A stretch of DNA of 64,000 bases from Halorientalis salina (GTDB lineage Archaea > Halobacteriota > Halobacteria > Halobacteriales > Haloarculaceae), in the NCBI RefSeq assembly GCF_005049285.1, contig NZ_SOSC01000002.1, forward strand, positions 62,001-126,000. The letters run 5' to 3'. Below are positions 7,296 through 22,175 of the stretch, in pieces. The stretch's first letter is position 1. Every line of letters starts with the position of its first letter. Position numbers and translations under genes: made by a program. The notes beneath the pieces were generated by a model that made no database searches, had not been told where the DNA came from, and saw nothing but the letters and a program-made list of their open reading frames with translations.

Positions 7296-9719
7296 ATGAC
7301 CGCGTCAGTGGACGGTCCGATTTCGGTCCTGTACGTCGACGGCGACGCCGACCAGCAGGATCGAGTCGTTGCCGGTCTCGAAGACGGGGGCGGGGATCTG
7401 GCAGTCACGGCGGTGGCGACCGGTGAAGACGCGATCTCTCGGTTCGACGCTGGCGCGTTCGACTGTCTGGTAAGCGAGTACGCGTTACCCGACACGGACG
7501 GACTGACGGTACTGGAGCGGGTTCGCGAGCGTGACGGAACCGTGCCGTTCGTGCTCTACACCGATGCCGGCGACGAGCGAGTGGCCAGCGACGCCTTCTC
7601 GGCCGGTGCGACCGATTACCTGCGGAAAGACGGGACCGACCAGGGCGACCTGACGGCGGCGATCGAGGCGGCCGTCGATGAGTACCGAACCGAGCGCGCA
7701 CTCGAAGAGAGCGAGGAGCGATATCGGACGTTAGTCGAGGGGAGTCACGACGGCATCTACATCTATCAGGACGCCGAGTTCGTCTTCGTCAACGACCGGA
7801 TCTGTGAGATCACCGGCTACAGCGAAGCGGAACTGGCCGACATGGAGATCTGGGAACTCGTCCATCCGGCCGATCGGGATCGGGTACGTGCCATCGGCGA
7901 ACGCAGAGCGCGCGGTGAAAACCCGCCCCAGACCTACGACTCCCGAATCCTGACGAAAGACGGGGAGACGCGATACCTCGAATTCAGCGTGGCGTCGATC
8001 ACCCACGAAGGCAACTGGGCGGCGCTCGGCTCGGTCCGCGACGTCACCGAGCACCGGGAGCGCGAACGAGAACTGCGGGCCGAACAGGAGTTCGTCCGGA
8101 CGATACTCGACACGCTCGACGACGTCATCTTCGTGAGTTCCCTCGACGGTGAGATACTGCGGTGGAACGACCGGCTCTGTGATGTCACCGGGTACAGTGA
8201 CGACGAACTCGCCGACATGGTCGTATTCGACATCGTGCCCGAAGAGTACGAGACGGACATGGTCGGCGTCATCCGCGACGTGTTGTCGACGGGCACCGCG
8301 AGCGTCGAAGGGGAAGCTCTCACCAGAACGGGCGAGCGGATTCCATTCGAGTTCCGCGGGTCGGAACTGCAAAACAGCGAGGGGGAAGTCATCGGAGTCG
8401 CGGGCGTCGCCCGTGACGTAAGCGAGCGCCGGGCACGCGAACAGGAGCTCGCGCAGTACCGAACGATCGTCGAGGCCGTCGGCGATCCGGTGTACACCCT
8501 CGATACGGACGGGAACTTCACGCTGGTCAACGAGGCGCTGGCCGAGATGACCGGCCACGAGGGCGACGAACTCGTCGGGGAGCACGTCTCGACAGTCATG
8601 CGCGACCAGGACGTCGAGACGGCGACGGAACTCATCGAGGAGTTGCTGAAAAGCGACGAGCGGCGCAACGCCACCTTCGAGATGCAGACCGTCACGGCCG
8701 AGGGCGACCGCGTCTCCTGCGAGGACCACATCGCACTCCTGCCCTCCAAAGAGGGGTTCCAGGGGACGGCGGGCGTCGTCCGCGACATCACGGACCGCAA
8801 GGAGCGCGAAGAGACGCTGCGGCGGCAAAACGAGCGCCTGGATCAGTTCGCCGGCGTCGTCAGCCACGACCTGCGAAACCCGCTCAACGTCATGTTGAGC
8901 AGGCTGGAACTCGCACGGCAAAGCGGGGACGAAGAGCACTTCGCGGCGATCGAGGCGGCCGGCGAGCGAATGGAGCGACTGATCGACGACCTGCTGACGC
9001 TGGCTCGCGACGGGCAGACCGTCGGCGAGGTCGAACCGGTCGCCCTCGGTCCGGCAGTCGAATCCGCCTGGAAGAACGTCGAGACGACGGCGGCGACGCT
9101 GTCGGTCCAGGCCGACGATGCACAGTTCCTCGCCGACAGCGATCGCCTCGCCTCGCTGCTGGAGAACCTCTTCCGGAACGCCGTGGAACACGGTTCCACG
9201 AGTCCTGACTCGCAAACTCGTCAGGACGCAGTCGAGCACGGCTCGACAAGCAATCGGATTTCGTCCGATGACGCCGTGGAACACGGTTCCACGAGCCCTG
9301 ACTCGCAAACTCGTCAGGACGCTGTCGAGCACGGCTCGACAGGCGACCGAACCGCGACACGTTCCAAAAGACCGACCGACCCGTGTGCACCGGGTAGCGA
9401 AGCGGGCCTCTCCGGTAGTGGGGGCGGGCCCGCGGAAGCGGCCGAGCAGCGTTCCGAAAGTGTTCGGGTTCGCGTCGGTCGCATCGAGTCAACCGGGACG
9501 ACCGGGTTCTACGTCGCCGACGATGGTCCCGGAATTCCCCCATCGGAACGCGCTGACGTGTTCCAGCACGGGTACTCGAACAGCGAGAACGGGACCGGGC
9601 TCGGACTGGTCATCGTCGAAGGGATCGCCGAGGCCCACGACTGGTCGGTGTCGGTCACCGAGAGCGAAACCGGCGGGGCGAGGTTCGAGGTGACCGGCGT
9701 CGAGCCGTTCGGCGGCTGA
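7296..9719 (+). CDS. Receiver-PAS-PAS-PAS histidine kinase with internal palindromic repeats
   Basis: An 807-residue soluble signalling kinase with no membrane helix. Residues 1-125 form a response-regulator receiver with acidic residues D15 and D17, T89 and K111, but Glu (E61 in VSEYALPDTDG) at the usual phospho-acceptor Asp. Three PAS domains follow (about 140-260, 262-385 and 388-505). The HisKA domain carries the autophosphorylated H524 in VVSHDLRNPLN. The ATPase domain has its N box at N628 (LFRNAVEHG), then DGPGIPPSE and GTGLGL. Between the N box and the next motif about 70 extra residues are inserted, with three further copies of AVEHGST. No partner regulator is adjacent. The signal sensed is unknown. 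Confidence 0.92.
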   Translation: MTASVDGPISVLYVDGDADQQDRVVAGLEDGGGDLAVTAVATGEDAISRFDAGAFDCLVSEYALPDTDGLTVLERVRERDGTVPFVLYTDAGDERVASDAFSAGATDYLRKDGTDQGDLTAAIEAAVDEYRTERALEESEERYRTLVEGSHDGIYIYQDAEFVFVNDRICEITGYSEAELADMEIWELVHPADRDRVRAIGERRARGENPPQTYDSRILTKDGETRYLEFSVASITHEGNWAALGSVRDVTEHRERERELRAEQEFVRTILDTLDDVIFVSSLDGEILRWNDRLCDVTGYSDDELADMVVFDIVPEEYETDMVGVIRDVLSTGTASVEGEALTRTGERIPFEFRGSELQNSEGEVIGVAGVARDVSERRAREQELAQYRTIVEAVGDPVYTLDTDGNFTLVNEALAEMTGHEGDELVGEHVSTVMRDQDVETATELIEELLKSDERRNATFEMQTVTAEGDRVSCEDHIALLPSKEGFQGTAGVVRDITDRKEREETLRRQNERLDQFAGVVSHDLRNPLNVMLSRLELARQSGDEEHFAAIEAAGERMERLIDDLLTLARDGQTVGEVEPVALGPAVESAWKNVETTAATLSVQADDAQFLADSDRLASLLENLFRNAVEHGSTSPDSQTRQDAVEHGSTSNRISSDDAVEHGSTSPDSQTRQDAVEHGSTGDRTATRSKRPTDPCAPGSEAGLSGSGGGPAEAAEQRSESVRVRVGRIESTGTTGFYVADDGPGIPPSERADVFQHGYSNSENGTGLGLVIVEGIAEAHDWSVSVTESETGGARFEVTGVEPFGG
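9183..9340 (+). repeat. Tandem array of seven palindromes inside the kinase gene
   Basis: Four palindrome types occur in the order A-B-C-D-A-B-C. A is GTGGAAC-acg-GTTCCAC (9183-9199, 9276-9292). B has CCTGAC and GTCAGG arms around a 10-nt loop (9204-9225, 9297-9318). C is GTCGAGC-acg-GCTCGAC (9231-9247, 9324-9340). D has ATCGGA and TCCGAT arms (9253-9269). The A-B-C block repeats with a 93-nt period (31 codons), so the frame is kept. A and C both encode VEHGST, a copy of the kinase's own N box. Confidence 0.9.
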
Positions 9720-22050: not shown

Positions 22051-22175
22051 GCGAACCACCCCTGGATGGTGAGGGAAAGGTCGTCAGTCGCAGCCAGGGA
22101 GGGACCGAAGGTCCCTCTTGCAGCCGGCGCCGATGGCGCCGGCGACCGCCTGCTGGAACGTCTGACGGCACTCAT
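22047..22175 (-). CDS. Micro-ORF (42 aa) between rpa1 and rpap1
   Basis: A short frame that starts in ATGA overlap with the rpa1 stop and ends in GTGA overlap with the likely rpap1 start, so translation could pass through all three genes. The peptide is Arg/Ser/Ala/Pro-rich, then SLAATDDLSLTIQGWFA. Two perfect palindromes fall within it. It may be a coding remnant created when a palindromic element inserted between rpa1 and rpap1, or merely a coupling leader. Protein function is doubtful. Confidence 0.4.
   Translation of the reverse strand: MSAVRRSSRRSPAPSAPAARGTFGPSLAATDDLSLTIQGWFA
22099..22143. repeat. Two adjacent perfect palindromes
   Basis: GAGGGACC-gaa-GGTCCCTC (22099-22117, 8-bp arms) and GCCGGCGCC-gat-GGCGCCGGC (22123-22143, 9-bp arms), separated by 5 nt. 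Both have 3-nt loops, like the A and C palindromes in the kinase gene. Confidence 0.85.

What the first reader, a model, noticed from the sequence alone, without database searches (positions are those of the whole stretch)
9183..9340. In-frame array of palindromes copies the N box of a histidine kinase
Seven perfect palindromes of four types occur as A-B-C-D-A-B-C with an exact 93-nt period, wedged inside the ATPase domain between the N box and the DGPGIP motif. Types A and C both have a 3-nt acg loop and encode VEHGST, which mimics the true N box (NAVEHG); the first A copy lies on the true N box itself. The array thus adds three decoy N boxes. This could be a coding-compatible mobile palindrome family (REP-like) or a way to tune the ATP lid. 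I believe similar insertions occur in other haloarchaeal kinases but cannot verify it.
Basis: partly seen in the sequence, partly recalled or inferred. Interest (0 to 1): 0.72.

Follow-up and report, generated by a model that had tools for sequence, protein, structure and literature searches.

The report
Palindromic DNA inserts mimicking kinase N-box
Many salt-loving archaea carry short hairpin-forming DNA inserts of about 15 codons, in frame, inside the ATP-binding motif of their sensor kinases; the insert appears to spell out the very motif it interrupts, so it looks like parasitic DNA that can hide in a protein's active site.

Summary
Observation confirmed: seven palindromes, order A-B-C-D-A-B-C, 93-nt period, start right after the catalytic Asn codon of a haloarchaeal (Halorientalis) histidine kinase. 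They are not local. VEHGST-coding palindromes occur in 199/292 Halobacteria genomes (54/77 genera), nearly always at the kinase N-box, and in 0/164 other genomes of the phylum (stricter pattern). Codon third positions covary to keep stems perfect (86%/84% against 45%/49% expected) and spacers are three classes of perfect palindromes. G·T mismatches are not favoured over A·C, which points to DNA rather than RNA. Arrays are hypervariable between orthologues and homogenised within genomes; five same-genus orthologues of this kinase lack the array. The same architecture without N-box coding, a 45-nt two-hairpin unit AGC-H1-NGGCA-H2-GAC, sits in frame in MutS, PolX, a molybdopterin oxidoreductase, an SDR and other kinases, and between genes. 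Best reading: a haloarchaeal family of palindromic insertion elements, like Rickettsia palindromic elements, one lineage of which has an H1 that encodes the N-box residues AVEHG. An empty/filled pair suggests the insert enters directly after the catalytic Asn and supplies the new N-box, displacing the host copy. The mobilising mechanism is not shown.

The parts
7296..9719 (+). Host gene: hybrid sensor histidine kinase, 807 aa (receiver, three PAS-type stretches, HisKA, HATPase_c)
   Evidence: HATPase_c matches only profile positions 23-106 because the array splits the domain
9177..9179 (+). Codon of the catalytic N-box Asn; the array begins immediately after it
   Evidence: (invariant N124 of the construct)
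9180..9227 (+). Unit 1 (48 nt, AVEHGSTSPDSQTRQD): palindrome A 9183-9199 plus palindrome B 9204-9225
9228..9272 (+). Unit 2 (45 nt, AVEHGSTSNRISSDD): palindrome C 9231-9247 plus palindrome D 9253-9269
   Evidence: CM R1 82.2 bits at the matching genome position
9273..9320 (+). Unit 3 (48 nt, AVEHGSTSPDSQTRQD): palindrome A 9276-9292 plus palindrome B 9297-9318; repeat of unit 1
9321..9341 (+). Terminal VEHGST copy: palindrome C 9324-9340, followed by an unrelated low-complexity linker
9519..9539 (+). G1 box DDGPGIP, downstream edge of the interrupted region
22099..22144 (.). Second, intergenic two-hairpin element in the window: GAGGGACC-GAA-GGTCCCTC, TTGCA, GCCGGCGCC-GAT-GGCGCCGGC, GAC, between an RPA-like gene and the next gene of the same strand

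Best explanation
The array is a head-to-tail run of a haloarchaeal palindromic insertion element. The general element is about 45 nt (15 codons): AGC, hairpin H1 (7-bp stem, 3-nt loop), NGGCA, hairpin H2 (7-3-7; variants 10-3-10 and 6-10-6), GAC. It occurs between genes and in frame inside unrelated genes. One lineage has an H1 that encodes VEHGST, so that inserted directly after the catalytic Asn of a histidine kinase it rebuilds the N-box (N-AVEHG) and leaves the kinase readable. The host's old AVEHG is pushed downstream and further units stack in tandem. The palindromes are kept at DNA level, by mutation bias (hairpin-templated correction), by the needs of the mobilising process, or both. 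Neighbouring H1 stems tend to differ at both variable base pairs, most simply because tandem copies with identical stems are lost by slippage or recombination. SHOWN: palindromes, covariation, family outside kinases, in-frame insertions, empty sites, array turnover, within-genome homogenisation. INFERRED: mobility as the cause, element supply of the functional N-box, the reason for alternating stems. UNKNOWN: the enzyme, if any.
For: Covariation at synonymous sites: V3-S3 Watson-Crick 86% (expected 45%), E3-G3 84% (49%), n=197. Spacers in three palindrome classes with compensatory and amino-acid-changing pair swaps. 51 arrays: 56% of bases in hairpin arms against 9% after codon redraw and 7% upstream. 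Same architecture outside N-boxes: MutS, PolX thumb, molybdopterin oxidoreductase, SDR, two other kinase positions, intergenic sites. An N-box-type unit inside an AMP-binding enzyme, L015. A general element nested inside an N-box array, L374 against L416. Empty sites: five same-genus orthologues NAVEHGG / NAVDHGG; L378 N|AVEHGSTSNRTSSDD|AIEHGGRDVTVRV against L166 N|AIEHGGRDVTVRV. In arrays found through a later copy the first copy reads VEH in 115 of 115 genuine N-boxes, empty sites in 16 of 25. 22 of 41 orthologue pairs with at least 85% upstream identity differ in segment length. Near-identical spacers (>=93%) in different kinases: 22.5% of pairs within a genome, 0.5% between genomes. Neighbouring boxes differ at both wobble pairs in 64%, 27% expected.
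Against: No transposition event or enzyme was seen; gene conversion and horizontal transfer could spread units without transposition. One genome rich in the general element (G006) has no Y1 transposase match, so a RAYT-like enzyme is not evidently required. Only one clean empty/filled pair identifies which VEHG copy is the host's; another (L403) lacks the second copy altogether. Gene conversion could also make the first copies uniform, and insertion might simply prefer VEH targets. Non-N-box elements were found with a model built on N-box units, with rough E-values, and only in two genomes in detail.
Confidence: 0.6

Rival explanations
1. Mutational origin without a mobile element: the VEHGST N-box is by chance palindrome-compatible, and hairpin-primed template switching and slippage during replication create, perfect and multiply palindromes there; gene conversion between the many paralogous kinases spreads them.
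For: Perfect stems with minimal 3-nt loops; no preference for G-T over A-C mismatches, 23 against 43; one inverted loop, VEPCST in G226; tandem duplication with chimeric broken boxes in G160; template switching proposed for Nematomorpha coding palindromes (PMC6649704); within-genome homogenisation.
Against: Does not explain the same 45-nt two-hairpin layout with the same NGGCA and GAC linkers in MutS, PolX and other unrelated genes, nor spacers whose stem sequences differ widely, nor precise in-frame gain at one codon boundary.
Confidence: 0.2
2. Selection for mRNA structure: the hairpins slow or pause translation or protect the transcript while the ATPase domain folds.
For: Very stable fold; conserved base pairing.
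Against: G-U pairs are no commoner than A-C mismatches, contrary to RNA selection. Orthologues differ in unit number or lack units. No Rfam match. The same units lie between genes.
Confidence: 0.07
3. Recombination hot-spot: the palindromes are retained because they promote recombination between paralogous kinases and shuffle sensor and ATPase modules.
For: Units are shared between paralogues within genomes and arrays are replaced between close orthologues, L373 against L422; haloarchaea recombine readily (PMC3988388 abstract).
Against: No phylogenetic test of module exchange was made; the same kind of unit also lies in genes that are not paralogous.
Confidence: 0.08
4. Ordinary protein-level linker or ATP-lid modifier, with palindromes as a by-product of the repeated amino-acid motif.
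For: The loop after the N-box helix tolerates inserts; the model shows a disordered loop there.
Against: Covariation at synonymous codon positions and codon-redraw controls; amino acids of the spacers change together with the stems; length is not conserved among orthologues.
Confidence: 0.03

Closest known systems
Rickettsia palindromic elements (RPE)
   Same: Short palindromic repeats inserted in frame into unrelated protein genes and also between genes, adding a peptide the host protein tolerates (PMC10969869).
   Different: RPEs are about 150 nt; here 45-nt two-hairpin units in tandem, in Archaea, with a lineage that sits in and re-encodes one catalytic motif. Rickettsial elements are described as losing repeat identity (PMC6649704), these stay perfect.
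REP elements, GTAG and CGTC families (PMC3733652)
   Same: Small stem-loops, often dimers, with heterodimers preferred in many families; some lie in genes.
   Different: No GTAG tag; 7-bp stem with 3-nt loop rather than 8-9 bp with 4-5 nt (CGTC families); mostly head-to-tail coding arrays; no Y1 transposase match in the element-rich genome G006.
Coding palindromes of Nematomorpha mitochondria (PMC6649704)
   Same: Perfect palindromes inside functional protein genes, maintained despite coding constraint, dynamic gain and loss.
   Different: Those are long, of many sequences, and not a repeat family with conserved linkers at a fixed site.
PARCELs (PMC2996958)
   Same: Tandem protein repeats whose DNA shows dyad symmetry and which appear mobile.
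   Different: 25-residue amphipathic repeats of proteins in bacteria and unicellular eukaryotes; here 15-17 residues, predicted disordered, in a catalytic domain.
PATEs of Haloquadratum (PMC3119063)
   Same: Non-coding mobile repeats with palindromes, in haloarchaea.
   Different: Palindromes lie near the termini and are related to IS605 ends; not described as coding 45-nt tandem units.

Membership tests
Rickettsia palindromic elements | Palindromic repeat inserted in frame in several unrelated genes | tested here: met
   MutS, PolX, molybdopterin oxidoreductase, SDR, AMP-binding enzyme, kinases
Rickettsia palindromic elements | Unit of about 150 nt | tested here: not met
   Unit is 45-51 nt
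Rickettsia palindromic elements | Sequence match to a described RPE family | not tested
   RPE sequences were not compared
REP (GTAG) elements with RAYT | Stem-loop tagged with GTAG | tested here: not met
   Flanks are AGC / NGGCA / GAC
REP (GTAG) elements with RAYT | Y1 transposase in the genome or next to elements | tested here: inconclusive
   G000 has three Y1_Tnp matches, G006 none though it has about 20 model matches; one element-like pair near a Y1 gene in L304
CGTC REP elements | CGTC tag, 8-9 bp stem, 4-5 nt loop, CCA-like tail | tested here: not met
   On the minus strand H2 reads YGTC-stem-TGCC, but the stem is 7 bp and the loop 3 nt
Curated structured RNA (Rfam) | Match to a curated RNA family | tested here: not met
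   No Rfam 15 match up to E = 1 over 9000-9500
PATE / IS605 derivative | Palindromes related to IS605 ends | not tested
   Terminal sequences of IS605-type elements were not compared; only flanks of Y1 genes were scanned for paired hairpins
Histidine kinase (host gene) | HisKA and HATPase_c domains over cut-off | tested here: met

The most novel reading that the evidence does not exclude
A selfish palindromic element that has evolved to encode the catalytic motif of its target: it inserts inside the N-box of histidine kinases, directly after the catalytic Asn, and its own hairpin supplies the functional AVEHG residues. Active-site residues of kinases across many haloarchaeal genera would thus be encoded by mobile DNA and replaced over and over.
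Probability: 0.45. Interest if true: 0.9.

Novelty: new variant of a known kind. Interest (0 to 1): 0.77.

Why it matters
It would show that mobile palindromic DNA can be tolerated inside a catalytic motif by imitating that motif, a strategy otherwise known from inteins and homing elements that restore their target, but here in 45 nt without any gene of its own. It also gives a large natural data set, hundreds of arrays with known orthologues, for testing whether DNA palindromes are kept by selection or by mutation, and it bears on the unexplained preference for heterodimers among REP elements. Practically, annotators should know that HATPase_c matches are broken by these units and that array length is not a stable marker.

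Tried and rejected
Rfam gave nothing. RNA-structure selection was tested through mismatch types and not supported. Flanks of Y1 transposases showed a few paired hairpins but no clear link. A general excess of 3-nt-loop hairpins over other loop sizes in the window and unselected loci was modest, so the signal is the family, not a genome-wide loop rule. Literature: ten searches of open-access full text found no description of these units in haloarchaea; subscription papers and preprints are mostly not held. An RNA-energy version of the shuffle test timed out and was replaced by an arm-counting test.

Full report
OBSERVATION. The seven palindromes are present as described, at 9183-9340, with a strict 93-nt period for types A, B and C. 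They lie in an 807-aa hybrid histidine kinase (7296-9719), begin one codon after the catalytic Asn (AAC, 9177-9179) and end well before the G1 box DDGPGIP (9519-9539). In coding units the array is 48 + 45 + 48 nt plus a last VEHGST: AVEHGSTSPDSQTRQD, AVEHGSTSNRISSDD, AVEHGSTSPDSQTRQD, AVEHGST. Of 174 bases, 104 are in perfect hairpin arms; synonymous codon redraws from the same gene gave a mean of 11.8 and a maximum of 59 in 2000 trials. The single strand folds with z = -7.3.

DISTRIBUTION. The codon-degenerate pattern GTNGARCAYGGNTCNAC has ten matches in the window's own genome: nine fall in five kinases at the N-box (four of them the array of this window) and one is elsewhere. It occurs in 199 of 292 genomes of the class, 54 of 77 genera, with almost no matches of the reversed control pattern. 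Nearly all fetched matches are N-boxes of histidine kinases. The window's genus probably is that of Halorientalis regularis (G168:C2 and NZ_JALJCL010000011.1 share the contig length 165,386), an inference from contig length.

DNA-LEVEL CONSERVATION. Among 197 VEHGST boxes the third positions of Val and Ser codons are complementary in 86% (45% expected from composition), those of Glu and Gly in 84% (49%). Spacers fall into three classes, 27 nt with 7-3-7, 33 nt with 10-3-10, and 30 nt with 6-10-6 hairpins; stem sequences differ but pairing is kept, so that residues change together, for example N-R-T-x-S-G-D with S-R-T-x-S-D-D. Over all stems A·C mismatches (43) are not rarer than G·T (23), which does not fit selection on RNA pairing and fits a strand-symmetric DNA process. 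The sequences are related, so these counts are not independent events.

ALTERNATION. Neighbouring boxes differ at both wobble pairs in 64% of 80 pairs, 27% expected; next-nearest boxes agree in 89-94%. The effect holds in arrays with only two boxes, 18 of 26 against 7.8 expected. One genome (G160, L134) shows the opposite: a run of near-identical units whose boxes are chimeric and no longer palindromic, as expected from unequal crossover at the shared CACGG. The simplest reading is that identical neighbours are unstable and are lost. A published survey notes an unexplained preference for heterodimers among REP elements and suggests protection from clearance (PMC3733652).

BEYOND KINASES. A covariance model built from N-box units gave its strong matches at N-boxes, and weaker ones (about 33-47 bits, rough E-values) elsewhere in the two genomes examined in detail. 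Reading these shows one layout: AGC, H1 (for example GAGGGAC-nnn-GTCCCTC), NGGCA, H2 (for example GTCGGAC-nnn-GTCCGAC), GAC, 45 nt in all. Copies are in frame, in the same frame (S-EGRSPS-G-SRTQSDD or similar), in PolX, MutS, a molybdopterin oxidoreductase, a short-chain dehydrogenase and two kinases away from the N-box, with Pfam domains confirmed around the insert. Others are intergenic, including one in this window at 22099-22144. An N-box-type unit sits in an AMP-binding enzyme (L015), and a general element is nested inside an N-box array in Halorubrum sodomense (L374 against L416).

GAIN, LOSS AND SPREAD. Five orthologues of the window kinase in the same genus (57-60% identity) have an empty N-box. 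Among 41 orthologue pairs with at least 85% identity upstream and 75% downstream (pairs not independent), 22 differ in the length of this segment, including 95% identical genes with four units against one. Spacers in different kinases of one genome are near-identical in 22.5% of pairs, against 0.5% between genomes.

WHICH COPY IS THE HOST'S. Halorientalis persicus L378 reads N-AVEHGSTSNRTSSDD-AIEHGGRDVTVRV, its relative in the window's genome, L166, N-AIEHGGRDVTVRV (76% DNA identity upstream). The right copy matches the empty site, so the 45-nt insert lies directly after the catalytic Asn and brings AVEHG with it. In arrays found through a later copy, the first copy reads VEH in 115 of 115 genuine N-boxes (one further row was a misread of an assembly gap); empty sites do so in 16 of 25, and last copies vary like empty sites. 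Gene conversion or target preference could also produce this, so the claim is inferred, not shown. In the predicted structure (mean pLDDT 77.5) the first VEHG ends the N-box helix with high confidence, and residues 131-210 of the construct, which hold all later copies, are low-confidence and mostly unstructured.

MECHANISM AND VERDICT. The layout, the in-frame copies in unrelated genes, empty sites, nested insertion and homogenisation make a palindromic insertion element the best account (0.6). Template switching with slippage and gene conversion, without a mobile element, remains the main rival (0.2); it probably contributes to keeping stems perfect in either case. No enzyme is identified; G006 holds many elements but no Y1 transposase match. 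Compared with known kinds, the element works like a Rickettsia palindromic element but is not a member by size; it also lacks the tags and dimensions that define GTAG and CGTC REPs. It is therefore filed as a new variant of a known kind, with mimicry of the target's catalytic motif as the new feature. No earlier description was found in the open-access library searched, which is incomplete.

Noticed in passing
window 22099-22144: A second two-hairpin element of the same family lies between an RPA-like gene and the next gene on the minus strand.
   Followed up: partly
L020 / L071 (G226): One array reads VEPCST where VEHGST is expected: the hairpin loop is inverted between its arms, as after strand switching at an inverted repeat.
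   Followed up: partly
L134 (G160:C49): A run of near-identical tandem units with chimeric, non-palindromic boxes (GTGGAGC-ACG-GTTCGAC), the signature of unequal crossover at the loop.
   Followed up: partly
L269, L271, L281 (G006) and L268, L270 (own genome C20): Arrays of several different 7-3-7 hairpins with the same GGGCA and GACAGC linkers outside kinases.
   Followed up: partly
L103, L104: Ambiguous bases (N) inside arrays suggest that array lengths in draft genomes may be misassembled or collapsed.
   Followed up: no
L304 position 166 (G058:C3): A two-hairpin element about 1.3 kb from a Y1 transposase gene; may be chance.
   Followed up: no
codons before the N-box (ENLFRN), window 9162-9179 and other kinases: The DNA CTCTTCCGGAAC before the array also looks unusually conserved at synonymous sites and contains the palindrome TTCCGGAA.
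   Followed up: no
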